Below, in pieces: positions 3,435 to 33,397 of a stretch of 64,000 nucleotides of DNA. Source of the DNA: Sphaerimonospora thailandensis (lineage in GTDB: Bacteria; Actinomycetota; Actinomycetes; Streptosporangiales; Streptosporangiaceae). The position numbers were made by a program, and so were the translations under genes. The first letter of the stretch is position 1. Each line of letters starts with the position of its first letter. The notes under the pieces were generated by a model. The model was not told the DNA's origin. It did not search any database and saw only the letters and a list, made by a program, of their open reading frames with translations. Where the stretch lies: positions 1 through 64,000 of the forward strand of contig NZ_BOOG01000004.1 of assembly GCF_016863115.1 (NCBI RefSeq). The letters are read 5' to 3'.

Positions 3435-3548
3435 ATGGTTTCCTTGGTGAACCGACAATAGAACGGGGTGAGCCGCCGGGGCATCCACCCGTGACCGTTC
3501 TGGGCCTGTTGGGCGATTGCGCACGAATGTACGCCCCGATGACTGATC

Positions 3549-6643: not shown

Positions 6644-6674
6644 CGAAGATGCTCGCTGTGAACTTGATACACGC

Positions 6675-9673: not shown

Positions 9674-9847
9674 CCGCCGGGCTCTCCATCTACCTTCGAT
9701 CCTCCACCAGGAGATCTGGACATCTACCTTGATGAACGCTAGATCGGAAGATAGAGGTCAAACTTCATCTTTTCATCGCATAGATGCTGTTCCGTGACAG
9801 ATTATCGGTAACGTCGCCCACGACTAGATCGCTAGCGGAGGGGCCTG

Positions 9848-11593: not shown

Positions 11594-11599
11594 TTTGCG

Positions 11600-13255: not shown

Positions 13256-13303
13256 TGCCGAAATCGGCACCCCAGTTTCGCGATCACCGTCGTTGTACAG
13301 GGA

Positions 13304-14197: not shown

Positions 14198-14257
14198 CGG
14201 TGGTTCCAGTTCCCGAAGCCACGTAGGAACCTCTTGCCGATTCCGAGCTTCGACATC

Positions 14258-15889
14258 TCAGCGTTCACCGTCCAAGCTGCCCAGGACCTCAACGATTTTC
14301 AGCACGTTGGGGTGGCTGCCGCCGTATTCACGCTTGAGATCAGGCAGCAGATCCGTCAGAGTCCTCCTCGCCCGGATCTGATCACCCGCGCCGAGTTCGA
14401 GCAGCCCGATTTGGCGTCGCAACTCCAGCACCCGGTCCTCGTCGACCCCGAACCGCTTTTCGTCCTCAAGCAAACGATTGAGCTGCGCGAGTGCGATGGT
14501 GACCTCGCCCACGGCGGCATGGCAGTTCGCCTCCATCAAGCGCAGGCGCAGAACGAGATCGTCGTCAGGCCCGTCCCGCCGCGTCAGCTGGGCGACGAGT
14601 CCGGCGAACTCTGGGACCGCCCGGCGATAGTCGCCGGCCAGGAACAGCATGTCCGCCAACTCGAGGCGCAACGAGATCACGTCGGGGTTGTCCGCGCCGA
14701 GCTCATGTGCCGCGGGCTCCACGACCCTGGCGAGCAGCTCCGCGGCCTGCGTGAAACGCGTCTCGGCCTTGAGCTCGCGCGCGTCCATTCGCGCCATCTC
14801 GATATCGCTCGGTCTGAAGCGCTCGGGGTCGCTCGGCCTGAGGGGTTCGGTCGCGGCGGCAGGCACATCGGGTGCGGCAGCAGGCAGATCGGACGTGGCG
14901 CGCACGGGCTCGGCCCTGCCCGTTTCCGCCTTCGGCGAGGCGCCGATCCGGCCCACGACGCCTGCGTACATCCGGACCGGATGACGTGCGACGGCGTCCA
15001 CGTAGCCGGGGAACGAGGGCAGGTCACGGCAGAAATCCAGGAGGCGCTCGTAGACCACGGTGGCCGACGCGGGCCTGTTGTCCGGCGACTTCTCCAGCAG
15101 CCACAGGACCAGCCGTTCCAGGCCTTCGGGCACGTCGCGCCGCCGTCGGCGCAACGGCCGCGGCGCTCGGGCCACATGGTTCTGCACGGACGCCAGGGGC
15201 GTCGCGCCACAGAACTGGTTCTCCCCCGACAGCATTTCGTCCAGCACCACGCCGAGGGCGTACAGATCGCTCTGTGGACTCGTCGAACCGGCCATCGCCT
15301 GCTCAGGTGCCACGTACTCGGGGGTGCCGACCATGACACCGGTCTGGGTGAGCCTGGTCGCGGTGGGCGAGAGCGCGGCGGCGATTCCGAAGTCCAGCAC
15401 CTTGACCGTGCCATCGGGACTCAGCATGAGGTTGCTCGGCTTCAGGTCCCGGTGGACCAGGGAGTTGTCATGGGCCACAGTGAGCACCGAGCACACCTGC
15501 GCGGCGATCGCCGCGGCCCAGGCGACCGGGATCTCGGTCTCGTCGAGCAGTGTGGCGATCGGGCAGCCGTTGATCAGCTGCATGACCAGGTAGAGCTCTT
15601 CCCCGTGGGTGCCGCAGTCGTAGACGGCGGGGACGCCCGGGTGTTCCAGACGTGCCGTGATCCGTGACTCGCGGACGAAGCGCTGCGTGAGCTCCCTGTC
15701 CGGTTTGCCGTCCGGCAGCCGATCGACACGGATGAACTTGATCGCTATCCGCCGGTCCAGACGCTTGTCGTAGCCGAACCAGACCTCGCCCATGCCACCG
15801 CCGCGTCGCGACAGGGGATCCAGCTCGTAGCGATCGTCGATAATCCGCCTGCTCAACCCGGCTGCCTTCCGCGAAGCCACCCTGTTCAT
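14258..15889 (-). CDS. soluble Ser/Thr protein kinase with TPR-like tail, DISARM-associated
   Basis: This 543-residue kinase has GGGMGEVW (30-37), Lys51, HRDLKPSN (146-153), an intact DFG (166-168) and GTPEYVAPEQ. Unlike the two kinases to its left it has no membrane segment. After a Pro/Ala linker, the last 170 residues (from about 370) are alpha-helical repeats of TPR style (ARVVEPAAHELGADNPDVIS, LADMLFLAGDYRRAVPEF), suited to protein contacts. It is the most downstream gene of the leftward defence block, 100 bases after the methylase-specificity fusion. A role in phosphorylating or regulating the DISARM proteins is inference, by analogy with PglW of the Pgl/BREX-2 system. Confidence 0.87.
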   Translation of the reverse strand: MNRVASRKAAGLSRRIIDDRYELDPLSRRGGGMGEVWFGYDKRLDRRIAIKFIRVDRLPDGKPDRELTQRFVRESRITARLEHPGVPAVYDCGTHGEELYLVMQLINGCPIATLLDETEIPVAWAAAIAAQVCSVLTVAHDNSLVHRDLKPSNLMLSPDGTVKVLDFGIAAALSPTATRLTQTGVMVGTPEYVAPEQAMAGSTSPQSDLYALGVVLDEMLSGENQFCGATPLASVQNHVARAPRPLRRRRRDVPEGLERLVLWLLEKSPDNRPASATVVYERLLDFCRDLPSFPGYVDAVARHPVRMYAGVVGRIGASPKAETGRAEPVRATSDLPAAAPDVPAAATEPLRPSDPERFRPSDIEMARMDARELKAETRFTQAAELLARVVEPAAHELGADNPDVISLRLELADMLFLAGDYRRAVPEFAGLVAQLTRRDGPDDDLVLRLRLMEANCHAAVGEVTIALAQLNRLLEDEKRFGVDEDRVLELRRQIGLLELGAGDQIRARRTLTDLLPDLKREYGGSHPNVLKIVEVLGSLDGER

Positions 15890-15989
15890 CGGAGAAATTA
15901 CCCGATCGGCGATGAGTGCGCAGGTGACTGGCGCAGCTCATGGCAGCCATCGCCAGGCCGTCGCCAGGCCGTCGCACGGTCATCGCCCG

Positions 15990-17876
15990 CTAACCGGCGG
16001 GTTCGAGCTCGCCGTCGGTGAGCCCTTGCAGGACCTGTCTCGCGAGCAGGCCACCCATCTGGGCGGTCTGGCGCACAGCGCTTTCGAAAGCGTCCAACCG
16101 GCGAAACGCCTCGCCGTACCGTCGCTGTTCCGTGATCGGCAGGCGGGGCAGTTTCGCGCGCCGCACGTCGACCCGATAGGTGCCCGACGACGTGACCGCG
16201 GCCCGCTCGGCGGACAGACGCAGGAAGCCGGCCACGAAGAGCGGGTCGAGCACCTCCTGGTCCACCCGGATGACGAAAAGGTGCGGGCCGAGCACCACCT
16301 CTTCTGTCATGACTCGGGCCATCACGTCGTGGGTGACCGCCGGGATCACGATGTCGCCGGGCCCGGCGGTCACGGTCTCCTGCCCTACCCGTCCGCGACC
16401 TGTCGGTCCGCGGCCCAGCACGACGTCCTTCGCGGTGAGCAGCGGCACGTCCCCCGACTCCGTCGCCATCCGCATCGGGGTCTGCTCCAGCTGGACGGCG
16501 CCCGCCCGGGCCAGCTCACCGAGCGTCGTCATCGTCAGGTCCCTGGTCTGCCGGCGCACGGCGGGCAGCAGCCCGGTCAGCGCCGAAGCCACCTCGTGGA
16601 GGTCGTCACGGGCCTTGTCCAGGTCTTCCACCCGTACGGCCGTCGCCTTCGGCAGGTGGCGCGACGGCGTGAGGTCCACCTCGTCGTCCAGCAGCTCCAT
16701 GATCGGTACGGCGCGGCCGACCGCCTCCACGCCCTCGCGGAACGCCTCGACCGGGCCATCGGCCATCAGCACATGCGTGGGCACGACGTCCCTGTCTTCA
16801 GGGCGCCGCGGCAACCCCGGCCGCCGCAGCAACCACAGGTGAGGCGGCAACGACGACTGCGGGGCTGAGCCGGCGGGCAGCCCGATCACCGCCTGCAGCG
16901 TCCCCGTCCGCAGGAGCTGCGACCGGATCCGACGTCCCGAACGGCGGTTGGCCGCGGCCGGAGGCATCAGCACCACCACCCGGCCGCCCGGCCGCACCCG
17001 GGCGAGGCAGTGCTGCACCCAGGCCAGCTCCGATTCGCCCCGTGGCGGCAGTCCGTACTGCCAGCGCGGGTCGGTGGTCAGCTCCTCGTACCCCCAGCCC
17101 CGTTCGTTGAACGGCGGAACGCACAACGCGCCGTCCGCCTCGCAGTCGGGAAAGGCGTCGGCGAGCAGCGCGTCACCGCAGCGAGTTTCGGCGTCGGTTT
17201 CCCGTACCGCCAGGCGTGCCGCGGCGAGCCGAGCCGTCGCGGCGTCCCGTTCCTGGCCGAGGAGACGCTTCGCGTACGGCTGGGCGGCCAGCAGCAGGGT
17301 CCCGAAACCGCAGAGGGGATCGAGCACCGCGTCACACGGCCCGAGCAGCCTGGCCATCAGGGCGGCGACGTCGTCGGAAACGAGCTGGACCCGGCGTGAG
17401 TGGGTCTCGATGTAGCGGCGGAACAGGAACTCCACCGTGTCACCGGTGCCGCGTGCGGCGGCCAGTCCTGTCAGGGCTTCCAGCAGGGCCGCGGGCACGT
17501 CCGCCCCTGCGCCGTCCGGTCGCTTCAGCGCGCGGTCCCGGTCGGGTCGGACGAGGAACGCCGCCATGGCGCTCACCAGCGGAGCGAGCTGCAGATCATC
17601 CGCGGCGTTGCGGAGCTGCTGCCACACTCGCTCGTCTTCCGGCAACTCCTCCAGCTTCCCCTGGTCGCGCAGCCACGCTTCGACCTCGGCCAGCGAGAAC
17701 AGCGGGTTCGACGAGGTGCCCGCGACCGGTTCCGGGAAGTCCTGAAACCTTCGGCGCCAGTTGCTGACGGCCGCCCGGCCCACTCCGGCCAGGCGTGCGA
17801 TGTCGCCCGCCGCCACCCTGGCGTCGTCGTGCGTCAACTGCCCTCTCCCATTCCCCAGAGTTTCAAGATCCAGCAC
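15990..17876 (-). CDS. HTH + N6-DNA methylase + HsdS-like specificity fusion
   Basis: The product (628 residues from the GTG at 17876; a TTG at 17837 is an alternative) opens with a helix-turn-helix (DIARLAGVGRAAVSNWRRR). An HsdM-like methylase follows, with motif I DPLCGFGTLL near residue 189. From about residue 460 comes a target-recognition-like region (VPLLTAKDVVLGRG, GDIVIPAV, YRVDVRRAKLPRLPITEQ) as in type I specificity subunits. Motif IV reads V-P-P-F near residue 252 where N/D/S-PP-Y/F is expected, which casts doubt on catalysis. It starts 12 bases after the drmC stop on the same strand. It may mark host DNA with the system's specificity, or act as a DNA-binding adaptor if inactive. 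Confidence 0.8.
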   Translation of the reverse strand: MLDLETLGNGRGQLTHDDARVAAGDIARLAGVGRAAVSNWRRRFQDFPEPVAGTSSNPLFSLAEVEAWLRDQGKLEELPEDERVWQQLRNAADDLQLAPLVSAMAAFLVRPDRDRALKRPDGAGADVPAALLEALTGLAAARGTGDTVEFLFRRYIETHSRRVQLVSDDVAALMARLLGPCDAVLDPLCGFGTLLLAAQPYAKRLLGQERDAATARLAAARLAVRETDAETRCGDALLADAFPDCEADGALCVPPFNERGWGYEELTTDPRWQYGLPPRGESELAWVQHCLARVRPGGRVVVLMPPAAANRRSGRRIRSQLLRTGTLQAVIGLPAGSAPQSSLPPHLWLLRRPGLPRRPEDRDVVPTHVLMADGPVEAFREGVEAVGRAVPIMELLDDEVDLTPSRHLPKATAVRVEDLDKARDDLHEVASALTGLLPAVRRQTRDLTMTTLGELARAGAVQLEQTPMRMATESGDVPLLTAKDVVLGRGPTGRGRVGQETVTAGPGDIVIPAVTHDVMARVMTEEVVLGPHLFVIRVDQEVLDPLFVAGFLRLSAERAAVTSSGTYRVDVRRAKLPRLPITEQRRYGEAFRRLDAFESAVRQTAQMGGLLARQVLQGLTDGELEPAG

Positions 17877-17888
17877 AGTTTCAAGATC
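17859..17888. repeat. 12-bp direct repeat spanning the drmC/methylase junction
   Basis: AGTTTCAAGATC occurs at 17859-17870 and again at 17877-17888, six bases apart. The second copy abuts the drmC stop codon and the pair surrounds the probable GTG start of the methylase, so a slip here would change the spacing or start of that gene. Confidence 0.85.
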
Positions 17889-18712
17889 TAGCGCAGGCGT
17901 TCGAGCAGGCCCTTCGCGCGCAGCTCGGCGATGTGCTCGGCTGCCCGTTGCGGAGCCGTTCCGCCGTGGATGAGCAACCCGGCCTCGATGTTGCCGGCCA
18001 CGCCCGACTGGGTCAGGTTGGCGCTGGACACCAGGAGCACCCGCCGGTCCGCCACGGCGAGCTTCGCGTGCATCTTCGCGTGCTGTTCCGTCCGTTTGCC
18101 GATCGGCCAGTGCCACAACTCGAGACCGGAGACCGACGTGAACGCCGCCGCGGGCTCGGCGCCGGCCAGGGCGGAACCCGCGCCCTGGAGGGTCTCGACA
18201 ACCGCCATCGCCGCGACGCCGCGCTCGACGGCCGCGCCGAGCGCCTCCAGCAGCGGGCCGTACGGCCTGGCCGAATAGGTCATCAGCACGAGCTCATGGG
18301 CCGCCTCCGACACGAGATCCACCAGCACCTGGCCGGTCGTTCGTACGGGCACGGCATGGGTGCTCGGCCCGCTCCACACGGATTCGACCCGGACCTCACG
18401 CGCGTGCTGGGCGTGCCCGTCGGCCACGCCGCGAAGGTATGCGACCGCCTCGGCGTCGGGCACCCTCTCCGCGTCCTGCGCCTCTAGCACCGCGTGGGCC
18501 GCCTCGGCGAAACCCGGCACCGGCACCGCCCCCGGGATCGCGCTCCGCGGCCACCCGTCGCCGATCCGCTGGGCGAGGGCGCGGACCCGGGAAGGCCCGA
18601 GCTGGGCGGCGGCCTGCGCCACCGCCCGTTCGAACGCCGTCCGTTCGAACGCCGTCTGTTCTAACGCCGCCCGTTCTAACGCCGCCCGTTCGAAGCGCTG
18701 CCGCGACGTCAT
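17888..18712 (-). CDS. drmC: DISARM DrmC, phospholipase D-fold protein
   Basis: This 274-residue protein has one clear HKD motif, MHAKLAVADRRVLLVSSANL, the signature of the phospholipase D/nuclease superfamily; the preceding block LVLMTYSARPYGPLLEAL fits the same fold. One HKD per chain implies a dimer forms the active site, as in PLD nucleases. The ATG at 18712 overlaps the drmB stop (ATGA). The first 30 residues are a pentapeptide repeat (FERAA/LEQTA) encoded by a 15-bp tandem repeat. Order after drmA and drmB identifies it as DrmC of class 1 DISARM, known to be dispensable for protection in some DISARM systems. Confidence 0.88.
   Translation of the reverse strand: MTSRQRFERAALERAALEQTAFERTAFERAVAQAAAQLGPSRVRALAQRIGDGWPRSAIPGAVPVPGFAEAAHAVLEAQDAERVPDAEAVAYLRGVADGHAQHAREVRVESVWSGPSTHAVPVRTTGQVLVDLVSEAAHELVLMTYSARPYGPLLEALGAAVERGVAAMAVVETLQGAGSALAGAEPAAAFTSVSGLELWHWPIGKRTEQHAKMHAKLAVADRRVLLVSSANLTQSGVAGNIEAGLLIHGGTAPQRAAEHIAELRAKGLLERLR
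18626..18695. repeat. 15-bp tandem repeat in the 5' end of drmC
   Basis: About five units of the form CGTTCGAACGCCGTC/CGTTCTAACGCCGCC lie head to tail. They encode the repeated pentapeptide at the DrmC N-terminus and are multiples of three, so changes in copy number keep the frame. Confidence 0.85.
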
Positions 18713-20610
18713 GGCAGCTCGGGATAGAGCGCGAGGTCGGGGTCGTCGATGGGCACCACGAACCGGCGGTCGAGGAACCGGTTGCCCCGCTCGCAGGTCG
18801 TCTCCGAGACGAAGAGGCACACGTGGCAGGCGGCGCCGTGCAGGAAGTCGGCGGGCGCCTGCGGGAGGCGTTCCGAGCACAACGGATCGGACGAGCAGTG
18901 CATCGCGTCATGCAGTGCCCGGCGTGTCAGCCGTACCAGGTTCGCGGGCTCGGCCAGCGAGACCAGGCCGCCGAGGGTTCCTTCGGCGTCGGGCACCGCC
19001 GTGTAGATGAGGATGCCGCTGCGCGGATCGTCGTCGCCGCCGGCGTAGACGCGTTCGGAGAGGCTGGCGGAGCTGTATCCGCATTCCAGCGAGATGGTGC
19101 GGATGAGCAGGTGAGACAGGGTGTGCAGGGCGTAGAAGCGAGCTCCCGGCCAGTGCTGCATCTTGTCGAACTGGCCGCGGACGCGGTCGCTGTAGCGGTG
19201 CGTCCGGAAACGTCCGTACGCCTCCTTGTGTTCACGCAACGCGAGCGTGTTCTCGACCCGCTTCTCCCAGTTGGCGAGCAGATCTTCGGGCAGTCTGAGG
19301 AAGATGCCCTCTCCCCGCACCTCGCTGGCCGGCACCCACGTCGCCCGGTCTCTGGCCAGCGGGGCTCGGGTCACCAGCTCCGGGTCCTCGGGGTCCGGCG
19401 CGTCCAAACGGGTGAAGCCGATCAGCGCGCGGACCTCCCGGAGGCGTTCGGCCTGGACCACGTCGGCGAAGACCCCGCGCAGCGGCTCGGGGACTCCCTC
19501 GGGGTCGCGGCGCAGCGCGAAGTCCTCGTCGGGCTCGGGCAGCTCGGGCGCGGACAGCACCTCCCACTCGGCGGTCCGCAGGTCGGGATAGCCCTCGGCC
19601 GCCGCTGCCTCCACCCCGTCGAGCTTGGCGCGGTGCCGCTCGACCGCGTCCCACACCGCCTGGTCGTCCCACTTGTCGAACTCTCTGAGCGCGGGTATGG
19701 CTCCGCGCAGGTAGGGCAGCATGTTCGGGCCGGGAATGCCGTACAGCGAGTTCCAGTGCTGGGCGACCTTGGCGTCCAGCACGCCGGCCCCCATCTCCGG
19801 CACCCACAGCGAGGACAGCGTCTGCGCGAACCACTGGTTGGAGGCGCCGACGACGAGAACGCGCACGGGGCGCGGGCACGAATCGAACGTGGACAGGTGC
19901 GGATGGCGGCCACGGCAGGCCGGGAGGCTGCGTTCGCCACGCCGGCCCATGGCCTCGGTGATGTTGCGCCGCATCCCGCACCGGTCACATTTGATCTCGA
20001 CGTTGGCGCCCATGTTCCCGCCCCGGTCGTCCATGCTCAGGGGCGGGAAGTCCACCTCGCAGGCGCCCCCTCGATGCACGAACCGCACGTACGGAAAGTC
20101 GTCCATATGGCCCTGCGGGCACGCGAGAACGAAACGGGCGGCCACCGCCAGGGGACGCGGGCCGGACTTCTTGCGCGGGCAGTTCTTGTGGAAGAACCGG
20201 GCCTCGTGCGGGGCGTGCTGCTTCGGGTTCTCGAAGCCGAAGACGACCTGCGACTCGATGGGCGCGAGCGTGTTGCAGGCCGTGCATCTCATCCAGGCGG
20301 GAAAGGGGATGGTGGGCACGCCCACGCGCGCGGCCATGCCGCTCTGGTCGTTGTCCGGCATCCAGGGAGCGGGACGCAGCCGCTCGACCTGCTTGCCGAG
20401 CAGGGTCTGCACGGCGGCCAGGAGCCGCGGCTCGGCCAGCGGCTCCCAGTCGGGAATCGGCCGGTAATCCCAGTCGTCCAGCCCTCTGACCAGCACGGAG
20501 AAGTTCGGCAGGTCCACCAGCGCACCGACGCCGCCGGTGAACATCAGGTGGCTGGGACGGACCGCGCCGACCCTGCGACGGTGCCCTTCGGGCTTGCGGG
20601 TCGCCATCAC
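18709..20610 (-). CDS. drmB: DISARM DrmB, DUF1998 helicase-associated protein
   Basis: This 633-residue protein has several zinc-binding-type clusters: CTACNT (near 107), CPQGH (near 170), CDRCGM (near 209) and a C-terminal DUF1998 block running from CSSDPLC through GAACHVCLFVSETTCERGN to FLDRRF. DUF1998 proteins act with a DEAD/DEAH partner; in DISARM, DrmA and DrmB form the core complex that engages phage DNA. The gene begins at GTG 20610 or ATG 20607, overlapping the drmA stop, and its own stop overlaps drmC, so drmA-drmB-drmC are translationally coupled. Length and order match the family. Confidence 0.92.
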   Translation of the reverse strand: MMATRKPEGHRRRVGAVRPSHLMFTGGVGALVDLPNFSVLVRGLDDWDYRPIPDWEPLAEPRLLAAVQTLLGKQVERLRPAPWMPDNDQSGMAARVGVPTIPFPAWMRCTACNTLAPIESQVVFGFENPKQHAPHEARFFHKNCPRKKSGPRPLAVAARFVLACPQGHMDDFPYVRFVHRGGACEVDFPPLSMDDRGGNMGANVEIKCDRCGMRRNITEAMGRRGERSLPACRGRHPHLSTFDSCPRPVRVLVVGASNQWFAQTLSSLWVPEMGAGVLDAKVAQHWNSLYGIPGPNMLPYLRGAIPALREFDKWDDQAVWDAVERHRAKLDGVEAAAAEGYPDLRTAEWEVLSAPELPEPDEDFALRRDPEGVPEPLRGVFADVVQAERLREVRALIGFTRLDAPDPEDPELVTRAPLARDRATWVPASEVRGEGIFLRLPEDLLANWEKRVENTLALREHKEAYGRFRTHRYSDRVRGQFDKMQHWPGARFYALHTLSHLLIRTISLECGYSSASLSERVYAGGDDDPRSGILIYTAVPDAEGTLGGLVSLAEPANLVRLTRRALHDAMHCSSDPLCSERLPQAPADFLHGAACHVCLFVSETTCERGNRFLDRRFVVPIDDPDLALYPELP

Positions 20611-23600
20611 TTGCCCTTTCCGGTCATCAGCGTGCTCTCACCGAGCTCGTCCCCTTCGGGGGTGTCGGCATCGTCGTCGTCGGCATCGGTGGCGGTGAAG
20701 GCCCAGTCGGGCGCGCCGTACGCCGGAGCGAACATCTCCTCCAGGCGGGGAACCAGGAGGTTGATCTCGTTCTCGGTCTCCCGCATGGACTGGCCGACGG
20801 TCATCGTGTCCCAGGCGCCCTCCCCCGCCGACCGCAGCAGCGGTGCCAGCGGCTGCTTGGTGGAGGAGCTCCCCTGGTAGCCCAGCCTGATCTCCCCGGT
20901 GCGCATCCTGAGCCACGTGTCGGTCACCACGTCGAGGCGTTCGCCCAGGTAGTCGCGGCCGCGTTCGCCCGCGACGGCCTCGGCCCTGGCCAGGAAGCGC
21001 TCCCGGATCCGTGCGGCGACCGGGCCGTCCAGCTCCACCGTGTGGGCGTCGGCGTTGCGGGAGAAGGTCTCCTCCGCGTTGCGCAGCGCGGCGACGAAGG
21101 CCGCCGTGACGCCCCGGTCCAGTGCCCGCCGGGTGTACGGGGTGACCGACAGCGCCTCCACCTGACGGTAGAAGGTGGCGTGGTAGTGCTCGAAGTCCTC
21201 GAAATGCGCGAGGTCACGCGGGCGGGACCAGTTGTACAGCGTGACCACCAGCCCCGGCCGTTCGGCATCACGGCCGACGCGGGAGGAGGCCTGGATGTAC
21301 TCGGCCGTGTTCTTCGGCTGCCCGGTCACCACCATGAGGCCGAACCTGGACACGTCGACGCCGACCTGGAGCATCGAGGTCGCCAGGACGACGTCGACCG
21401 GCAGCCGCTGCCGCGCCAGCCACTGGTCGACCAGCGGATGCTCGGGGCGTTTGTCCCGGTAGGCGAAGGCCCGTTCGGCGCTGAGGTCGTACTTCCGCTT
21501 CGAGGTGTCGAACTCGGGATCGAAGCCGACCTCCAGGTTCCTGAGCACCTCGCTGATGTCGGTGGAGGAGATCCGCGAGGTGAGCTCCTGGACCGTGAGC
21601 ATCTCCAGCCGGGTCGCCAGCCGGTTGGACAGGCCCTTGCGCTTCCCATGGGTGCGGATGCGGGTCGTCACGTCGTCGTCGACGTAGCGGCGCATGCCGG
21701 CCAGCTCGCGGGTGGCGTTGAAGTAGCCGACGAGCGTCATGTACGGATCGGCGGCCTTGCCGTACCTGTCGAAGACGGTCTGCCCGGCGATGAGCAGGAT
21801 CTCCGCGAGCCGGATCTCGGCGGACTTGAGACGGACACCGTGCGCGCAGACGCCCAGATAGCGCCGCCCGGGGTTGTCCGGCGTGATCGGCACCTGACGT
21901 GAGAAGAAGGTGTCGGCCACGTCGATGACCTGCGGCGGGAAGATGGCCAGCTCACGCGCGAAGACGCCGAGCACCTGCGCGTCGGCCCGCTTGGTCGTCG
22001 CCGTCGAGGCGACGATCTTCGGGCCGAATCCGTCTCCCCAGGTGCACAGCTCGTCCACGGCCGCCTCGAAAAGGCCGACGGTGGTGCCGAGCGCGCCGGA
22101 GATGAGGTGCAGCTCGTCCTGGATGATCAGGTCCGGCGGGCGCAGCCGGGTGACCGGCTGGCTCTGGACGGCCGGCAGCGCGCCCTTCGCGTTGTGCCTG
22201 GACGTGCATCCGGTCTTGGCGTTCAGGTCCTCGTGCCGGTAGCCGTGCCGTGGGCACCATTCGCGGACCCGGCCGAACAGATGGCCGGCGAACCCGCGCC
22301 ACGGAAGCTGGGCCAGCTTGTCGACGGTCGCGATGACCAGGCTCGGGGTGAGGCGGTAGATCTCCTCGTCCACGGTGAGGATCGGCAGCCCCTCGCCGGG
22401 GGACATCCTGCGGGAGAACGGGCAGGCGTTCAGCCCCTCACCGTTGGCGCAGTAGAGCACGACGCGGCGGCGGTCGTCGTCGATCTGCAGGTCCTCGTGC
22501 CCGCGCAGCGTCTGCCCGCACCACGGGCAGGACAGGGTCTGCAGGACGTTCGGCCGCTTGCCCTCGGGGGCCGCCCGCGCGTCGCTCACCTCCTTGGCCG
22601 CGCCCTCGAACCAGTTCGGGGAGACGGCACTGCCGACCCAGAGCCCGATGCGGAACGGCGTGCCGCCCCAGGTCTCCTCGTCACGCCGACGGAGCATCTC
22701 GGCGGCGCACACCAGGGCCGCGGCCCGCTGGAACTGCTGGGCGGTGAGCAGCCGCAGGGTGTAGCGCATGAGAACGGCCACGCCGTCCAGGCCGCTGCGC
22801 GCCTGCTCGGCCGTGCCCACCACCTTCTGCAGTCGCCTGATCGCGAAGGTGTACGCGGTCAGCCCGAGATATGCCTCGGTCTTGCCGCCACCGGTCGGGA
22901 AGAACAGCAGGTCGGTGGTGGCGGTGTGGTCGGCCGCCCGTTCGGGGTGTGCGGGATCGGTCAGCGACGGCAGGTTGAGCAGCACGAACGCCAACTGGAA
23001 CGGACGCCAGGACGCGGCTTTCGCCCCCTCCTGCGCGACGACCTCGGACGCGGCCTCGAAGGTGAGGCCCCGCTCCTGCCGGAGTTTGGCGATCGCGGTG
23101 TGCCGCCGCTGCAGCGCCATCGCCTCGTTGGCGAACCGGAACGCCTTGAGCGCGTCCCCGTCGGAGAGCAGCAGGTCGATCCCGGCACGGATGCGATCGG
23201 CCGCGCGGCGTGCCTTGAACACGGCGCTCTCGGCCGTGGCACGCAGCGCCGCCGGCAGCGTCGGGATCTCGGCCGCGCGCTTGTCCAGCCAGGCCGAGTA
23301 GCCGTCGGCCAGCGGCGCCAGCCCGGCACGCAGCCTCTCGGCGTCGGCCTCGGCGGCCTCCGCCAGGGCGTCCATCGACAGCTCCATGTCGCCGAGCCCG
23401 GTAGTGGGCGCGATGGTCGCGGGCACGTCGTAGACCGGCAGCCAGGTCGTTCGCAGCTCGTGGGCACGCCGTTCGTTGTCACGGATGACGGCGTGCACCG
23501 CGACGTTGCGCCCGGAGGCGTACCGCCGCTCGTTCCGGTAGAGGAGCCGCAGGTGGGCGTCCTCGTCGTCGTATCCCGCTCCCCCGTCGCCGTCGAGGGG

Positions 23601-24419: not shown

Positions 24420-24524
24420 TGTTACGCTCCACCTCGTTCACGTCGAAATATGCTCGGAGCAGCAAAGCTCGGCATCGTCACAGAGTTGAGTCCACGATCG
24501 GTCAATCCCGCCGACAGGAATGCT

Positions 24525-25968: not shown

Positions 25969-26129
25969 ACCTCCCTCCCCCCGATCTTCGCACCGGCACA
26001 CCGCTCACCTACGCCAATCCGCTGCTGACGCCCGGCCGGCCAGTGCCGGGAGCAAGCGTTGCCGGGTCGGCCCAGCGTCTGTGAGCCCAGTTCCGAAGCG
26101 TGGAAGCGAGTAGTCGGGATGGCGCCTCA

Positions 26130-29100
26130 TCACCACAGGGTGCCTTTCTCGTCGCCGGCCTTCGGCTTCCCACGGCCGGCCTTCTTGCCGGGCTTGTCGT
26201 GGAGGCCCTTCGCGACCTCTTCGGCGTAGCGCTCGTGGTTGAGCTCAAGGAGCCGGTCGACAAGCTCGCGTTGCACGGCAGGGCCGACCGTGTAGCGGAT
26301 CTCGCGCCCGACGGGATGATGGCCGTGGTCGAGTTCGTCGATCAGATCGTCCCAGCCATAGGCCCGGCAGACCGCCTCATCGATCGCCTTGTGGATCGCG
26401 CGTAGCGTGACGATGTCCTCGTCGGTGTTCGCCGGATCGTTGACCATGTTGTAGGTCGCGGTGAGCCCCGCCTCCCGCGACAGCATGAGCTCCCGCCGGA
26501 ACCTGTCCAGCCGCTCCCCCAGCTCCCGCATCCCCTGCGTCAGCTCCGGCAGCGAAAGCGTCTCGAACACATCCGAGGGCGTGTACCGAAGATCGGCCTT
26601 CATCGAAGACGCCCGCGCACGCGCCCACCAGTAATGCGGCGCACTCGACAGCAGCGCCAGCACCGCCGTGTCATCCGTCGCGAACACTCCAAGCGCGTGT
26701 GAGAAGACCTGACCGGTCGGCACCATGACCGGCATCACGACCTTGCTGACAAGCGTGATCACAACGACCCGCTCCAGCCCTGCGATGGCCTCGTAGAGCT
26801 TCGGCGCTCGTTCCGCAAACTGCCACCAGCGTTCGCGGCGAACCTTGCGGTTGTTGCTGTCTCGCTCGGGCTTCACTAGACGCAGTACCTGATCGTACGG
26901 CTCTGTATAGGTCTTGGCCTGCCACTCCTCCATATCGTAAAAGTTGATGACCCAGCGACTTCCTGAGTAATCCGGCCGGGAGTTCAGATCCTGTCCGTTC
27001 AGGTATGGATAGAGCACTTCTTCGTTCCGCGATTCGCTCGCGATCATCGCCTTCGCAACCTCGGGATTCATCGTGAAACCTAGACCGAGGATGTTCGAGC
27101 CCTGGAACGACCGCCCTCCGTTAGCCATTAATCGGTAAGGATTACCGGCAACCCTAGACGCCGGATCCAGAGACGGGGTGATGGCTGTAACCGCGACTCC
27201 GTCCGCAATTCTCTCGGCCTTTTCACTGACCACGGATCGGCTGGACCAGACGGCGCAGTACTCCAAGACTGCGCTCTTCGAGGGCCACGGCTTGCTCTTC
27301 ACCGCTTGGCGAATCGTCACACCACTTGCCACGAGCTGGTCAAGGCCTACTTCGCGGGTGTCACCCTGAGCGAGGGTGTTGGTGGCGATCAGACCAGTCT
27401 GACCCGCTGGATTGAGCAGGTTGTGCGCGCGCAACACGAAGTACGCCACCAGGTCGGCACTGCCGCGTGCCCCTCTCCCGATCGCCTCGACCAGGTACTC
27501 GCGGTAGGCCACGCCCATCGTGCCGGTGAGCTTCTGCCCGCCAAGAAAGGGTGGGTTGCCGATAACCGCGTCGAAGCCGGGGCCGTGGGGGCGCTTCTGC
27601 TTGTCGTCTTCGAAGACCTCGGGGAAGACGAGCGGCCAGTGGATGGGCTGGCGGTCGAAGGAGCCGGGCACGTGGTCTTTGTTCAGCCACTCCTTGCGCT
27701 GCTCGCGGGCCTCGACCTCGGCGCCGGCCAATCCCTCGGTGATGCGGCGGACGTAGTCGGCGGCGGCGATCGAGCCGTCGCGCAGGCCGGTGTCTCCCCT
27801 GCCCGCGCACGCAAGAGCCGCGCCCACGGCGAGGTCGGCGAACAGCCGAGCCTGGGACGTCTTCAGTTCGGCGTCGGCCAGCACGCTGCGCTTCTCCGCC
27901 AGGGCGGCCATCGGGTCCTTGCCGAGCTTGATGTCGGCGAGCGCACGGCGTTGGGTGGCGACCTCGCGCACCAGGTCACGGGCGCCCACGGCGAAGTTCC
28001 GCAGGGCACGCTTCTCGTGGATCTCGCGGCCCCGCTTGGGGTTCATGTGCATCACTTCGAACTGGTCGAGCGAGGTGATGCCGAGCAGCGAATCACCGCA
28101 GACGAGCCGGTCGTCAAGGAACGTGAACGGGCGTTCGTTGTCCATCGAGACGAGCCAGAGCGACAGCTTGGCCATCTCGACCGCCATCGGGTTGATGTCC
28201 GCGCCATAGAGACAGCGCTCGATGATCTGCCGGGTCGCCTCGACGACCACCGGGTCCTGGTCGGTGTCGGCCGTACGGGCCGCGGCCGCGTCGCCGGCCA
28301 GGTAGGCCGCCGCCCGCTCGTCGCCTTCGCGTGACCAGGCCTCGACGAGATGGCGGGCGAGATACCGAGCTGCGGCGACCAGGAAGGCGGCCGAGCCCAT
28401 GGCGATGTCGGCGACCTTGAGCCGCAGGATCTCCGCGCTCGACTTCGGCTGCCACTGGGAGCGGTCCGCCGTCTGGAGCGGCCCGACCCGGTAGACCAGC
28501 GGCTCCAGCGCTCCCTCCACGACCTGCTCGGCGAGGAACCGCGGGGTGTAGTGGGTGCCGGTGTTCTTGCGCAGCGCCGACTCCGTGACGTACAGCGCGC
28601 CGGGCAGGATGACCATGGGCAGCTCGCGCAGGTCGAAGCGGATGATCCCGTAGAACGGCAGCAGCCGCTCGGCCAGGTCGCGGTCGCCGCCGGTCACGGC
28701 CAGCAGCTTCCGGAGCGCCGCGTCGCTGTCCGCCTCGGCCCTGCCCGCCTCAGCCATCGGGGCGAGCCGCTTCGCGATGGCGGCGGCCGTACCGATGCCG
28801 GAGGGCTTGTACAGCTCGGCCAGCTTCGCCGCGAGGCCGTTCCCCGCTGAGGCCCCCGCTGAGGCCCCGGCCGAGGCGGCGAGCCGTTCCAGGTGGGTGA
28901 GCTCGACCTCCTCCTCCAGGCCGGGCTTGCCGACGAGGCCGACCACGGTGTCGGTCGCCCGGTGTCCGTCGAAGGAGAGCAGGCCCTCGTAGACGTACCC
29001 GATCTGCTCGACGTCCAGGGCGCGGAAGCTCAGCCTGCGCCGCTCGCGGGCCCTGCCCGAGCCGATCTGGACGTACTGCACGGCCTTGAGCATGTGCAGC

Positions 29101-30266
29101 ACGGTCCGGTCGTCGATGGAGAGCGGCAGCCAGGCGTGGACGTCGGGGTCGAACATCGAGCCGTCGTGGGCGTGCATCCTCAGGCGGGGGTGGTCGACGC
29201 CCGCGTAGACCACGTTGAAGAGCGCGAGCAGCCGGTGCCAGGCGGCCTGGGTCTGCTCCAGGTCGTTCTCGCTGCCTTCGATGACCATCTGCTCCAGCTC
29301 GGCGCACAGGCCCCCGGCGGAGTAGGCGGCGGCGTAGAGCTCGTTGTCGGCAGGCAGCAGACCGCGTTCCTCGGCGAAGAGCAGGAACACGATCCGCATC
29401 ATGACGGTGACCGCGCCGCGGTAGACCTCGTGCGCGGCGACGTCGCCGATGCCCGCACCGCCGGCCGCGCGGTCACGGGCGTCGGCGCGGCCGATGGCGG
29501 CGACGAGCAGCTCGACGGCCTGACGCACCTGGACGCCCAGCGCCTCGGTGATGTCCTCCTGGCTGTCCAGGCTGGCCCGCAGCAGCGCGGGCGGCGTCTC
29601 CTCTTCGGGCACGGAGAAGAAGCGGGCGCGCTTGAGCAGCGAGACGAACGCCCGGACCACGTCGCGCTCGGCCGCCTCCGGCCACGAGATGGCGTCGAAG
29701 ACGGCGGTCGTGGTGACGCCGCCCCGGGGTGCCCAGATGAGGGTCCACCAACGGCCGTCGGTGACCAGGCCGAGCTCGACGCCGTGGTGCCGGCAGAGCT
29801 GGGCCAGCCGGTCGGCCGGGGTGGCGGCCCAGGCGTCCCCCTTGATCCGGGCCGTCGGCCGGCCTTCGCAGATCATGCCGATCAGCCGTACGCTGTCCGG
29901 CTTGATCTCTTCACCCGACTCGCTGGGGTCGACCAGGGCGAAGTCGGGGACGAGCTGGGTGTCGTGCTGCGGCACGTCGACGGCCAGCGCGTCGAGGCCG
30001 CGGATGTGCAGCGCGTCCTGCCAGCCGAGCAGGTCGCGCAGGCCGTACAGGATCCAGTCGTCGACGAGGCCCCCGGCCTGCCACGTCCCGTGTTCGAGGC
30101 GCAGCCGCTCGCGGGCCTCCCTGTCGAGCGGATCGAGCGACGGCCAGGTGCGGCGCAGGACCGGGAGCGACAGGAACGGCCCGGACACCTCGACGAGACT
30201 CAGCCAGTCCTGGTGCACGCGGTTCGCGTCGGGCTGCTTGCGCCGGCCGGTCGCCTGGCTGCTCAT
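26130..30266 (-). CDS. drmMI: DISARM DrmMI, Eco57I-type N6-adenine DNA methyltransferase
   Basis: This 1,378-residue methylase has motif I as DIAMGSAAFLVAAARYL near residue 624, then YGADINPMAVEMAKLSLWLV, and catalytic NPPFLGGQKLTG near residue 905, all intact. The N-terminal 580 residues are typical of the large class that combines a recognition/regulatory region with the methylase. The C-terminus is Lys/Gly rich (KPGKKAGRGKPKAGDEKG). The ATG overlaps the drmD stop (ATGA). In class 1 DISARM this enzyme marks host DNA so that it is spared. Position between drmD and drmA and the presence of NPPF support the name. Confidence 0.9.
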   Translation of the reverse strand: MSSQATGRRKQPDANRVHQDWLSLVEVSGPFLSLPVLRRTWPSLDPLDREARERLRLEHGTWQAGGLVDDWILYGLRDLLGWQDALHIRGLDALAVDVPQHDTQLVPDFALVDPSESGEEIKPDSVRLIGMICEGRPTARIKGDAWAATPADRLAQLCRHHGVELGLVTDGRWWTLIWAPRGGVTTTAVFDAISWPEAAERDVVRAFVSLLKRARFFSVPEEETPPALLRASLDSQEDITEALGVQVRQAVELLVAAIGRADARDRAAGGAGIGDVAAHEVYRGAVTVMMRIVFLLFAEERGLLPADNELYAAAYSAGGLCAELEQMVIEGSENDLEQTQAAWHRLLALFNVVYAGVDHPRLRMHAHDGSMFDPDVHAWLPLSIDDRTVLHMLKAVQYVQIGSGRARERRRLSFRALDVEQIGYVYEGLLSFDGHRATDTVVGLVGKPGLEEEVELTHLERLAASAGASAGASAGNGLAAKLAELYKPSGIGTAAAIAKRLAPMAEAGRAEADSDAALRKLLAVTGGDRDLAERLLPFYGIIRFDLRELPMVILPGALYVTESALRKNTGTHYTPRFLAEQVVEGALEPLVYRVGPLQTADRSQWQPKSSAEILRLKVADIAMGSAAFLVAAARYLARHLVEAWSREGDERAAAYLAGDAAAARTADTDQDPVVVEATRQIIERCLYGADINPMAVEMAKLSLWLVSMDNERPFTFLDDRLVCGDSLLGITSLDQFEVMHMNPKRGREIHEKRALRNFAVGARDLVREVATQRRALADIKLGKDPMAALAEKRSVLADAELKTSQARLFADLAVGAALACAGRGDTGLRDGSIAAADYVRRITEGLAGAEVEAREQRKEWLNKDHVPGSFDRQPIHWPLVFPEVFEDDKQKRPHGPGFDAVIGNPPFLGGQKLTGTMGVAYREYLVEAIGRGARGSADLVAYFVLRAHNLLNPAGQTGLIATNTLAQGDTREVGLDQLVASGVTIRQAVKSKPWPSKSAVLEYCAVWSSRSVVSEKAERIADGVAVTAITPSLDPASRVAGNPYRLMANGGRSFQGSNILGLGFTMNPEVAKAMIASESRNEEVLYPYLNGQDLNSRPDYSGSRWVINFYDMEEWQAKTYTEPYDQVLRLVKPERDSNNRKVRRERWWQFAERAPKLYEAIAGLERVVVITLVSKVVMPVMVPTGQVFSHALGVFATDDTAVLALLSSAPHYWWARARASSMKADLRYTPSDVFETLSLPELTQGMRELGERLDRFRRELMLSREAGLTATYNMVNDPANTDEDIVTLRAIHKAIDEAVCRAYGWDDLIDELDHGHHPVGREIRYTVGPAVQRELVDRLLELNHERYAEEVAKGLHDKPGKKAGRGKPKAGDEKGTLW

Positions 30267-33200
30267 CGGGAGGCCTCCTGCCTGGGGACGACGAAGATCA
30301 CGGCTACGGGGAAGATGTGCTCCTGGGGGTCGCGGTAGCGGGCCGCGATGGCCTCCTGCTCCCGCCGGCGCTCCTCGGACAGCCGGTCGAGGCGCGCCCG
30401 CCAGGATTCACGGTCGCGCCGGTACTGCTTGAGCTCCTGCTCGTCCTTGGTGGCCTCGATGCGGCTGAACAGCGCGTCGTCTTCTGCGTTCTCGGCGAGC
30501 TTGGCGCGCAGCGTGGCCGCGAACCGGTCGAGGTTGGCGGCGATGCGGCTCTGCTCGGCCTCCTGCCGCTTGGCGAGCAGGTTCTCCAGCGACTCGCGGC
30601 GGGTCTTCACCCGGGCGTCGATGGCGTCGATGAGGCCGGGCCGCATCCTCTGCCAGCTGTCGGCCAAGTGCCGGTGGAGGTGCGGGGAGGCGGGCAGCCC
30701 CTGGGTGAGGGCCCGGTCGAGGATGCCGCGGAGCGTGCCCAGGGTGTCGAGCCTGCGGAACCGGCCGCTCTGCTGCGCCCAGCCCCCGGCGTAAAGCACC
30801 TCCTCGTGCAGCCGGACGCCGTCGCCGCCGACGAGGACGTACCGCGCGTAGGCGCCGATGAGCGTCGTCTCCAGTGCGGGGTCGTCGCTGACCACGGCGG
30901 TCACCCGGTGCAGGCCGATGTCCGGGTTCGACACGGCGGCGCGCAGCAGCCGGGTCGACATGGCGACCAGCGGGTGGTTGAGATGGGCCAGCACGACGTC
31001 GTCGCGCAGCTCCCCGACCACCGCGGGGTCGAACGTGATCGGACGCTGCCGGGGCGGCTCGCCGACCTTGGAGATCTTCTCGAGGAGCCCGGCGGCCGCC
31101 CGTTCCCACGAGCCGGTCAGCGGAGGGACCTCGAAGAGCCCCTCGGTGAGGTGCCTCTCATCCAGGTGCGGCTTCAGCGGCTGCTGGCGGGCGAGATCCA
31201 GCGCGGTGTCCACGACCCGCTTGACGCTCCGCGGGGTGATCCTCAGCTCGCTGATCGTCTCGTCGAGGTTGGCCCGCAGCTTCCTGACCTGCTCACCGAC
31301 GTTGGCCTCGACCGGGACGTCCTCCTTGGGCGCGACCCGGTCGATGTCGTCGATGCCGACGTCCTCGCCGAGCATCCGGCGCTGGACGCGCTCGGAGATG
31401 ACGACGTTGACCGGGCCCAGGTCCTTCTGCTGCTGGGCGACCTTCTCGGCGATCCGGGCGAGGAACTCCAGGTCGGCCTCGTAGGAGTCGACGGCCGTGT
31501 CCCAGCCGGTGCCGACGAAGTGCCGGATGTCCGGGGTGTGCTGCTGGCCGTACCGGTCGACCCGGCCGATGCGCTGCTCAAGTTTGTTGGGGTTGAACGG
31601 GATGTCGTAGTTGATCAGCCGGTGGCAGTGGTTCTGCAGGTCGATGCCTTCGCCGGCCGCGTCGGTGGCGAGCAGGATCCGCACCTCGTACTCTGTGGGG
31701 TCCTTCTGGAAGGCCTGCCGTACGTGCTCGCGATCATCGGCGGCCATGCCCCCGTGGAGGAGGGCGAGGCGGTCGCCGCCGAGGCCCTCCTGATGGAGGA
31801 GGTCGGCCAGCCAGGTCTGGGTGTCGCGATATTCGGTGAAGACCACGACGCGCTCGTTGGTCCAGTGCCGGTCGGGCCGGCAGACGGCCTTCAGGTAGTT
31901 GATGAGCTCCTGGGCCTTGGCGTCCGGCCGCACGGCGTGCTTCTGCGCCCAGCGCCGCATCTTCTCCAGCAGCTCGATCTCCTGCTCCGTGGCGCCCTCC
32001 TGGAGGGGATGCGCCCGGTTGACCGCGTCGTCCTCGGCCTCCGCGAGGGACTCGTCGTCGAGGGTGGCGGTGTAGTCGGCGAACTCCTCGACCCACTCGG
32101 GAACCTCGTCTGATTCGTCGGCCATGGCGGCCACGGCGGACACGGCCGCCGCTTTGGCGCTGACCGTGTCGAGGTAGACGCCGACGGTGTGGAGGAAGGC
32201 CGCCGGGCTGGAGAAGAGCCGCTTCTTCAGCAGCAGGGTGACGAGGTCGGCGGCCCTGCGTCCCTTGGTCCTGGTGAGGCGCTTCTTGCGGGCCGCGGCG
32301 AACTGCTTGAGCAGTTCGTGGATCTCCCGCTCGTCCTGGGGATAGAGCACCGGGATGGCCCGTGCGCCGCGTTCCTTGAACCGCTTGGAGCCGTCGCCGT
32401 TGACGATGTCACGCTTGAGCCGCCGGACGACGGTGTCCGTCACCGCGGCCGCGTCGGGGTCGACACCCCGGGCGAACCGCTGGTCGTCGAGCGTCTCCAG
32501 CAGTGCCGTGAACGACGCCTGGTAGCCGTTGTGCGGCGTGGCCGACAGGAAGAGCCGGTGGGTGAAGTGCGGTGCGAGCCGACGGATGAGCTTGGTCTGC
32601 TGGGAGTCGACCGCGTAGACCTGCTTGGGCGCGGCCGGGGCGACATGGTGCGCCTCATCGAGGATGAGCAGGTCGAACTCGCGCCTGTCTCCGGACGGGT
32701 CGAGCACCTCGTCGAGGAGCCGCTGCGCCTTCTGCCCCCGCAACCAGGGCAGGCTGACGATGGTCAGCGGGTAGACCTCGAAGGGATTGGCCGCGCTTCC
32801 GTGGCTGCGGCGGACGACCGCGCAGCGTTCGGCGTCGATGATCGTGAAGTCGAGGCCGAACTTCTCGGCCATCTCGTCCTTCCACTTGAGCGTGAGCCCC
32901 GCCGGACACACGATCATGATGCGTCTGGCCCGGTGCCTGAGCAGCAGCTCCTGGGCGACCAGGCCCGCTTCGATGGTCTTTCCCAGGCCGACGTCGTCGG
33001 CGAGCAGGAGGTTCACCCGAGGCGCGTCGACCGCCCGGGCGACCGGCTCAAGCTGGTAGTCCTCGATGGCGACGCCGGAGCGGAACGGCGCCTGCAGCGT
33101 CCTGACGTCCGCCGAGGTGACCGCCGACCAGCGGATCGCGTCAAGAAAGGCCGCGAGACGCGCAGGCGGGTCGAAGTCCGTCACTTCCGGCAGCGAGCCG

Positions 33201-33397
33201 CTCGGCAGGATGCGCCTGCCGGGCTCGGCCTCCCAGATGACCTCGAGAGTGTGGCCGTAACGTCCGTCCTCGACGCTCTGCAGGCTCACCAGGCTGCTGC
33301 TCTCGCCGGCCTCGACCTCGCTGACCACCCACCGCTGACCACGGACGGCGACCAGCGCCCCGATGGTCGGCTTCTCCGACGTCACGCTCGTCACCAT
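30263..33397 (-). CDS. drmD: DISARM DrmD, SNF2-family helicase
   Basis: This 1,044-residue Swi2/Snf2-like ATPase has motif I DDVGLGKTIEAGL near residue 137, motif II DEAH near 245, motif III FLSATPHNG, motif V DAAGEGIDLQ near 582 and motif VI EQRIGRVDRYGQ near 612. A coiled, charged tail (EERRREQEAIAARYRDPQEH) closes the protein. DrmD together with DrmMI defines class 1 DISARM. The ATG at 33397 is preceded by GAGGAG. It is the first gene of the leftward operon; transcription presumably starts in the 33398-33646 gap, which also contains a palindrome. Confidence 0.92.
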   Translation of the reverse strand: MVTSVTSEKPTIGALVAVRGQRWVVSEVEAGESSSLVSLQSVEDGRYGHTLEVIWEAEPGRRILPSGSLPEVTDFDPPARLAAFLDAIRWSAVTSADVRTLQAPFRSGVAIEDYQLEPVARAVDAPRVNLLLADDVGLGKTIEAGLVAQELLLRHRARRIMIVCPAGLTLKWKDEMAEKFGLDFTIIDAERCAVVRRSHGSAANPFEVYPLTIVSLPWLRGQKAQRLLDEVLDPSGDRREFDLLILDEAHHVAPAAPKQVYAVDSQQTKLIRRLAPHFTHRLFLSATPHNGYQASFTALLETLDDQRFARGVDPDAAAVTDTVVRRLKRDIVNGDGSKRFKERGARAIPVLYPQDEREIHELLKQFAAARKKRLTRTKGRRAADLVTLLLKKRLFSSPAAFLHTVGVYLDTVSAKAAAVSAVAAMADESDEVPEWVEEFADYTATLDDESLAEAEDDAVNRAHPLQEGATEQEIELLEKMRRWAQKHAVRPDAKAQELINYLKAVCRPDRHWTNERVVVFTEYRDTQTWLADLLHQEGLGGDRLALLHGGMAADDREHVRQAFQKDPTEYEVRILLATDAAGEGIDLQNHCHRLINYDIPFNPNKLEQRIGRVDRYGQQHTPDIRHFVGTGWDTAVDSYEADLEFLARIAEKVAQQQKDLGPVNVVISERVQRRMLGEDVGIDDIDRVAPKEDVPVEANVGEQVRKLRANLDETISELRITPRSVKRVVDTALDLARQQPLKPHLDERHLTEGLFEVPPLTGSWERAAAGLLEKISKVGEPPRQRPITFDPAVVGELRDDVVLAHLNHPLVAMSTRLLRAAVSNPDIGLHRVTAVVSDDPALETTLIGAYARYVLVGGDGVRLHEEVLYAGGWAQQSGRFRRLDTLGTLRGILDRALTQGLPASPHLHRHLADSWQRMRPGLIDAIDARVKTRRESLENLLAKRQEAEQSRIAANLDRFAATLRAKLAENAEDDALFSRIEATKDEQELKQYRRDRESWRARLDRLSEERRREQEAIAARYRDPQEHIFPVAVIFVVPRQEASR

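What the first reader, a model, noticed from the sequence alone, without database searches (positions are those of the whole stretch)
14258..33397. Complete class 1 DISARM locus with three additional genes woven in
drmD, drmMI, drmA, drmB and drmC are all present, intact and in overlapping frames on one strand. Between drmMI and drmA lies an ABC-type ATPase. After drmC come an HTH-methylase-specificity fusion and a soluble kinase with a TPR-like tail. Standard class 1 DISARM is known as the five core genes; the kinase and second methylase recall BREX-2/Pgl. A hybrid in which phosphorylation and an ATPase sensor gate DISARM is plausible but is inference.
Basis: partly seen in the sequence, partly recalled or inferred. 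Interest (0 to 1): 0.85.

Follow-up and report, generated by a model that had tools for sequence, protein, structure and literature searches.

The report
DISARM phage-defence locus with built-in kinase
This is an intact class 1 DISARM phage-defence operon whose trailing protein-kinase gene, and a methylase-like neighbour that has lost its key catalytic residue, are inherited with it in related actinomycetes and probably control it, whereas the ATPase gene inside it is a broken leftover of another element.

Summary
The five class 1 DISARM genes are real, intact and collinear. The three 'extra' genes are three different things. (1) The ATPase is the truncated A gene of a two-gene element, PADLOC candidate HEC-01. 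Its partner survives as about 27 codons. It sits in a hypervariable cargo slot between drmMI and drmA (gap over 1 kb in 18 of 39 loci), so it is not a DISARM part. (2) The TPR-tailed kinase follows drmC in 25 of 25 loci of the window's DISARM lineage and 0 of 15 of the sister class 1 lineage. It co-evolves with the drm genes beyond species history, so it behaves as a sixth DISARM gene. (3) The HTH-methylase-S protein is in 17 of 25. In the window's sublineage it has lost the catalytic N/D of motif IV (VPPF), yet stays under purifying selection. It is near-identical between two species whose DrmMI target-recognition domains differ, so it is probably not a second self-marking methylase. The same pair also sits beside type I restriction operons and, rarely, BREX type 2. 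Best reading: a portable kinase plus DNA-binding (pseudo)methylase control module, attached to this DISARM lineage. The signalling direction is inference. Not BREX/Pgl, not MADS.

The parts
30263..33397 (-). drmD (SNF2/BrxHII-like helicase, 1044 aa)
   Evidence: PADLOC DrmD 1398 bits; GLGKT and DEAH present
26130..30266 (-). drmMI (MmeI/Eco57I-like adenine methyltransferase with its own TRD, 1378 aa)
   Evidence: PADLOC DrmMI 1744 bits; NPPF kept, TRD about 1060-1245
24814..26001 (-). truncated HEC-01A-type AAA_21 ATPase (cargo remnant); its conserved C-terminus is missing
   Evidence: HEC-01A 1e-157; comparison with G090, G085, G076
24444..24524 (-). about 27-codon remnant of the C-terminus of the HEC-01B partner
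   Evidence: tblastn 52% identity, E 0.003 over the 64-kb window, at the place expected from relatives; intact partner in G085 = HEC-01B 4.7e-82
24420..26129 (-). drmMI-drmA cargo slot (1710 bp here)
   Evidence: gap over 1 kb in 18 of 39 loci, against 0 of 120 at the three other junctions between core genes
20607..24419 (-). drmA (YprA-family helicase, short DrmA form, 1270 aa)
   Evidence: NCBIfam DISARM_DrmAS 1432 bits, cut-off 950
18709..20607 (-). drmB (DUF1998/MZB protein, 632 aa)
   Evidence: NCBIfam DrmB_fam 708 bits, cut-off 240
17888..18712 (-). drmC (PLD nuclease, 274 aa)
   Evidence: PADLOC DrmC 6e-111; HAKLAVAD motif
15990..17837 (-). 'MTS': HTH + N6-methylase-fold + S-like TRD + long helix; predicted catalytically dead (motif IV VPPF); start uncertain, 17816 (GTG) or 17837 (TTG)
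14258..15889 (-). 'KIN': soluble PknA/PknB-like Ser/Thr kinase + disordered linker + TPR-like tail (543 aa)
   Evidence: K51, HRD146-148 and DFG166-168 intact

Best explanation
A class 1 DISARM operon of an actinomycete lineage in which a soluble TPR-tailed Ser/Thr kinase is a lineage-specific sixth core gene, usually paired with an HTH-methylase-S protein (MTS). DrmMI marks self DNA. DrmD, DrmA, DrmB and DrmC handle unmarked DNA. MTS, whose methylase fold in the window's sublineage has lost its motif IV catalytic residue, serves as a DNA-binding sensor or scaffold rather than as a marking enzyme. The kinase reads partner proteins through its TPR tail and phosphorylates MTS and/or Drm proteins, so that restriction is licensed only on infection. 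Shown here by sequence: intact core, conserved kinase, co-inheritance, dead motif IV under purifying selection, and the ATPase as a broken unrelated insert. Inferred: DNA sensing by MTS, phosphorylation of DISARM parts, and its sign (activating).
For: KIN follows drmC in 25 of 25 lineage loci that reach drmC (4 of 29 lineage loci do not) and in 0 of 15 sister-lineage loci. KIN and MTS distances track drm distances: r 0.76-0.81 and 0.85-0.91; after removing rpoB distance, KIN-drm 0.72-0.79, MTS-drm 0.89-0.92, core-core 0.82-0.90. Kinase Lys, HRD and DFG are invariant in the 22-row alignment; the TPR tail is modelled. MTS motif IV is V/I/A in one monophyletic group of 9 rows (probably 8 genomes) including the window; NPPF or DPPF in all four paralogues of the same genome examined; DPPF in 12 of 12 PP2C-linked MTS. 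dN/dS of MTS against four relatives is 0.17-0.38, like drmB 0.10-0.37. Between G034 and G108 the DrmMI TRD windows are 40-68% identical while MTS is 97-100% in every window. A kinase domain is fused to a YprA/DruE-like helicase in the same genome. Precedent: the kinase activity of PglW is essential for Pgl resistance (PMC4365076, passages).
Against: No experiment shows that this kinase affects DISARM. The same KIN-MTS pair also lives without DISARM: of the 17 closest full-length KIN loci in the GTDB scan, 8 have DISARM, 1 a drmC remnant, 1 BREX-2, 3 type I RM, and 4 an antisense RelE/UvrD gene only. Eight of 25 DISARM loci with KIN lack MTS, so MTS is not required. Loss of the first motif IV residue is a strong sign of inactivity, not proof.
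Confidence: 0.58

Rival explanations
1. KIN, alone or with MTS, is a separate defence unit, for example an abortive kinase of the PD-T4-6/Stk2 or KKP type, that travels next to DISARM as a passenger and kills or arrests the cell by promiscuous phosphorylation when DISARM fails.
For: KIN matches PD-T4-6 kinase models. The pair exists without DISARM. A kinase-kinase-phosphatase module can act as a toxin-antitoxin in phage defence (PMC11341870, passages). A short-kinase/MTS/PP2C locus is conserved in several genera.
Against: Strict position and co-inheritance in 25 of 25 lineage loci; absent from the sister lineage. No phosphatase was seen beside it in the window.
Confidence: 0.22
2. MTS is an active second adenine methylase that marks self DNA alongside DrmMI (a double-lock hybrid restriction system), and the kinase regulates it as proposed for Pgl.
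For: The best structural matches are complete type I and PacII methylases. Nine of 17 DISARM-linked MTS keep DPPF.
Against: In the window motif IV is VPPF, and V/I/A across its whole sublineage. MTS does not vary with the DrmMI TRD.
Confidence: 0.1
3. MTS is mainly a transcriptional autoregulator (HTH plus SAM-binding body) of the operon and the kinase switches it off, so the pair sets expression level rather than gating the nuclease complex.
For: N-terminal HTH. It is attached to unrelated restriction operons and to solitary loci, as expected of a generic regulator. Kinase control of immune-operon repressors is reported in the title and abstract of PMC13373217 (search listing only).
Against: The gene sits near the 3' end of the operon. 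No operator was looked for. The TRD-like domain and long S-type helix suggest more than a repressor.
Confidence: 0.22
4. One reading: the ATPase is an infection sensor and part of a combined ATPase-kinase hybrid gate on DISARM.
For: It lies inside the operon on the same strand.
Against: C-terminus lost, partner gene deleted, found in few loci, and located in a hypervariable cargo slot.
Confidence: 0.03

Closest known systems
Class 1 DISARM (drmD, drmMI, drmA, drmB, drmC)
   Same: All five core genes, in order, with intact motifs
   Different: Adds a lineage-conserved TPR kinase and usually MTS after drmC. The papers read or searched name core drm genes and none was seen to mention this kinase. 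The 2018 founding paper was not held.
BREX type 2 / Pgl
   Same: Kinase plus methylase in one restriction locus; in Pgl the kinase activity is essential (PMC4365076, passages)
   Different: No PglW (NERD), PglY or PglZ called here. KIN is a short PknA/B-like kinase with TPRs. The MTS-KIN pair does adjoin a real BREX-2 in L120.
MADS (methylation-associated defense system)
   Same: HTH, methylase, ATPase and kinase parts all show weak or generic similarity to mad1, mad2, mad3 and mad6
   Different: Far below the NCBIfam cut-offs: MAD2 18.5/720, MAD3 121.7/420, MAD6 116.3/460. No hit to other mad models in the listed rows for the window proteins scanned.
ARMADA type II
   Same: Shares the DrmD/BrxHII-like, PglX-like and YprA-like set; 16 of 25 relatives also carry a UvrD-type helicase with a RelE-like N-terminus after KIN, as described for ArmD. 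The UvrD part is confirmed by Pfam; the RelE-like part is my reading of the N-terminus.
   Different: Here DrmA is the DISARM short form, with separate DrmB and DrmC. The window itself lacks the RelE-UvrD gene.
KKP kinase-kinase-phosphatase
   Same: Kinase-based defence module
   Different: No phosphatase seen in the window; the associated protein is a methylase-like DNA binder and the partner is a restriction system

Membership tests
Class 1 DISARM | drmD, drmMI, drmA, drmB and drmC all present and no drmE (PADLOC rule, PMC9252829) | tested here: met
   all five called, no drmE hit in the listed rows for the window proteins scanned
Class 1 DISARM | Intact catalytic motifs in helicases, nuclease and methylase | tested here: met
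Class 1 DISARM | Methylation-dependent phage restriction | not testable with these tools
   Needs phage assays
BREX type 2 / Pgl | PglZ and PglW/PglX/PglY | tested here: not met
   No PglZ, PglW or PglY calls in the listed rows for the locus proteins; DrmMI scores only weakly with PglX; KIN 38.5 bits against a PglW cut-off of 990
MADS | Eight mad genes (recalled); family cut-offs for MAD2, MAD3 and MAD6 reached | tested here: not met
   all three far below cut-off; no other mad genes listed
ARMADA type II | YprA helicase with C-terminal nuclease, without the separate DrmB/DrmC of DISARM, followed by RelE-UvrD (PMC12458937) | tested here: not met
   DrmA hits DISARM_DrmAS over its length and DrmB, DrmC are separate genes; no RelE-UvrD after KIN in the window
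HEC-01 (PADLOC candidate, two genes) | Complete HEC-01A ATPase plus HEC-01B | tested here: not met
   A is truncated and B is reduced to a 27-codon remnant in the window
Active N6-adenine methylase (MTS) | Motif IV [N/D/S]PP[Y/F/W] (pattern recalled) | tested here: not met
   VPPF in the window; motif I is kept

The most novel reading that the evidence does not exclude
MTS plus KIN is a portable signalling cassette: a DNA reader built from a (often dead) type I-like methylase, wired to a TPR Ser/Thr kinase, that actinomycetes attach to mechanistically unrelated restriction systems (class 1 DISARM, type I RM, occasionally BREX-2, and ARMADA-like loci where a kinase is fused to the helicase) to license restriction by phosphorylation. 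In this DISARM lineage the kinase has become a sixth core subunit.
Probability: 0.4. Interest if true: 0.85.

Novelty: new variant of a known kind. Interest (0 to 1): 0.62.

Why it matters
How large restriction systems such as DISARM avoid destroying their own cell is an open question, usually answered with methylation alone. A kinase fixed in one DISARM lineage, with a methylase-like partner that no longer marks DNA, would mean a second, signal-based lock. Because the same pair adjoins type I and BREX-2 loci, one set of experiments could test a control layer shared by several defence systems. It also warns that genes lying inside a defence operon may be decayed cargo.

Tried and rejected
Rejected: ATPase as a DISARM part. 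Rejected: MADS or BREX-2 membership. Considered: BREX-2 as a usual home of the pair; a check of the 30 pglW loci delivered (of 56 listed matches) found KIN beside 1 (L249, divergent), so it is rare. Considered: MTS as a co-specificity factor for DrmMI; against it, MTS stays constant where the DrmMI TRD changes. The 297-aa ORF after KIN (u297) matched no library used and no other called protein; left unexplained. A first rpoB control picked antisense frames in some genomes and was discarded; three of the 25 genomes (G143, G081, G005) had no usable rpoB and were left out there, and G106 has an odd, long rpoB that was kept. Foldseek and VIA-align rows for the KIN model cover only the kinase domain, so the TPR tail rests on the predicted helices and weak TPR_12/FxSxx_TPR matches. 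Part failed on a script error and was rerun. Papers: PMC12458937 abstract, sections 5, 8, 26 and passages; PMC4365076, PMC11341870, PMC9142583, PMC9252829 and PMC12904381 passages only; PMC13373217 title and start of abstract in a search listing only; the Maestri 2024 MADS paper and the Ofir 2018 DISARM paper were not held, and what is said of them is recalled. The statement that this kinase was not found described with DISARM rests on searches and on those readings.

Full report
WHAT IS THERE. The minus strand of 33397-14258 carries drmD, drmMI, an ATPase ORF, drmA, drmB, drmC, an HTH-methylase-S gene (here MTS) and a kinase gene (KIN). PADLOC and NCBIfam call the DISARM core genes with very strong scores, and their catalytic motifs are present. 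It is therefore a complete class 1 DISARM by PADLOC's rule (PMC9252829, passage). Overlaps exist at drmD/drmMI, drmA/drmB and drmB/drmC only.

COMPARISON SET. DrmMI was searched in 297 related genomes; 45 had a match at 1e-100 or better. I fetched regions round 44 matches, plus a second partial copy in the window's own genome. Two contig-edge matches of G181 were not fetched. Sorted by DrmMI identity there are 29 loci of the window's lineage, window included (58% or more); 4 of them do not reach drmC. In the sister class 1 lineage (51% or less) 15 loci reach drmB/drmC; one more is truncated (G226) and one match is not a DISARM locus (G139b).

KINASE. KIN follows drmC, directly or after MTS or other short genes, in 25 of 25 lineage loci that reach drmC and in 0 of 15 sister loci (Fisher p 2.5e-11; this p treats related loci as independent). 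Catalytic Lys, HRD and DFG are invariant in the 22-row alignment. The model shows a PknA/PknB-like kinase (VIA-align Z 31.6 to PknA over 266 residues, 2.1 A), a disordered linker at about 303-354 and nine helices at 361-541. KIN distances correlate with drm distances (r 0.76-0.81), also after removal of rpoB distance (partial r 0.72-0.79; core-core pairs 0.82-0.90; 21-22 genomes).

MTS. Present in 17 of 25 loci. It has an N-terminal HTH, a methylase fold, an S-like target-recognition domain and a long helix (AlphaFold2 mean pLDDT 87), closest to complete type I and PacII methylases. Motif I is kept. Nine of the 17 keep DPPF; one reads GPPS. All four paralogues examined elsewhere in the window's genome keep NPPF or DPPF, and so do 12 of 12 MTS linked to a PP2C phosphatase. 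Motif IV also departs from the canonical form in L120 (NLPF), L124 (TPPF), L126 (APPF), L130 and L137 (DPPV). Despite this, dN/dS of the window MTS against four relatives is 0.17-0.38, as for KIN (0.16-0.31) and drmB (0.10-0.37) (synonymous sites are fairly diverged, so these are rough). Between G034 and G108, DrmMI windows across the TRD fall to 40-68% identity while the N-terminal part is 94-100%, yet MTS is 97-100% in every window. The enzyme that sets specificity changes; MTS does not.

ATPASE. The ORF matches HEC-01A at 1e-157. Intact relatives (G090, G085, G076) are 400-417 aa, end in a conserved IVEASEGLPLGELWFSGSLGGDL-type tail, and are followed by a 186-211 aa partner; the G085 partner is HEC-01B at 4.7e-82. 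In the window the tail is missing and only about 27 codons of the partner remain just upstream of drmA. The gap between drmMI and drmA exceeds 1 kb in 18 of 39 loci, against 0 of 42, 0 of 40 and 0 of 38 at the other core junctions. The ATPase is thus a broken guest in a cargo slot.

BEYOND THE KINASE. In 16 of 25 loci a UvrD-type helicase gene with a RelE-like N-terminus (the architecture described for ArmD of ARMADA type II), and in 8 a GmrSD_N/DUF262 gene, follow KIN within three genes; some loci end too early, so these are lower bounds. The window has neither.

OTHER HOMES OF THE PAIR. Among the 17 closest full-length KIN loci (L114-L130): DISARM 8, drmC remnant with MTS 1, BREX-2 1 (L120: PglW, PglX, PglY at E from 0 to 3e-265), type I RM 3 (L126, L129, L130), antisense RelE-UvrD without DISARM 4. 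L142, more distant, is a type I locus too. MTS homologues are present in 28 of 33 of L114-L146 but in 1 of 47 of the remaining, more generic kinases. The short-kinase loci next to MTS carry a divergent PP2C phosphatase in 11 of the loci L131-L146. In the window's own genome a kinase domain is fused to a YprA/DruE-like helicase next to a drmD-like gene and an MTS paralogue. BREX-2 association is rare: KIN beside 1 of 30 pglW loci inspected out of 56 listed matches.

MECHANISM. Most likely the kinase licenses or tunes DISARM, with MTS as DNA-binding reader or scaffold; in Pgl, PglW kinase activity is essential and is proposed to transduce the infection signal (PMC4365076, passages). That phosphorylation hits DISARM parts, and that it activates, is inference. 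The main rivals are a stand-alone abortive kinase and a purely transcriptional regulator.

VERDICT. New variant of a known kind: class 1 DISARM with a lineage-fixed kinase. The bold reading, a portable kinase/pseudo-methylase control cassette shared by several restriction systems, is not excluded.

Noticed in passing
L007 (G000:C1:1-20000), drmD 7223-10429 and drmMI 3059-7226, minus strand: A second, partial class 1 DISARM (drmD plus drmMI, about 70% identical) in the same genome; the contig ends about 3 kb past drmMI, so the rest is unseen.
   Followed up: partly
window 9848-11593 and 11600-13255 (+): Two tandem kinases (45% identical to each other) facing the operon, without a TPR match; relation to KIN unclear.
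   Followed up: no
L046, L047, L049, L050 and L115, between MTS (or drmC) and KIN: An antisense single-domain kinase gene (K2/K3-like; 205 aa in L115) lies just before KIN in five loci.
   Followed up: partly
L092:13107-19397 (+): 2096-aa fusion of a Ser/Thr kinase domain to a YprA/DruE-like helicase, next to a drmD-like gene, a PD-DExK gene and an MTS paralogue: a possible ARMADA-like system with built-in kinase.
   Followed up: partly
L131-L136, L139, L141, L143, L144, L146; own genome L093: Conserved PP2C phosphatase / MTS / short-kinase locus with no restriction operon recognised beside it in several actinomycete genera; MTS always keeps DPPF there.
   Followed up: partly
L054, L056, L059, L070, L084 and others, between drmMI and drmA: The drmMI-drmA junction is a hypervariable cargo slot holding 1-22 kb of varying genes; in G179 and G266 no drmA was found within the roughly 32 kb read after drmMI.
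   Followed up: partly
L047 against L049 (G034, G108); also L065/L066 and L063/L067: Apparent TRD exchange in drmMI between close relatives with near-identical flanks: a natural specificity swap.
   Followed up: partly
window 13304-14197 (-): 297-aa ORF after KIN with no match in any library used and none among the loci held; possibly a decayed gene.
   Followed up: partly
L145 (Streptomyces aureus NRRL B-2808), 5152-19181: A different layout: three kinase genes and an MTS upstream of drmD (61%) and drmMI (53%); the rest of the operon was not fetched.
   Followed up: no
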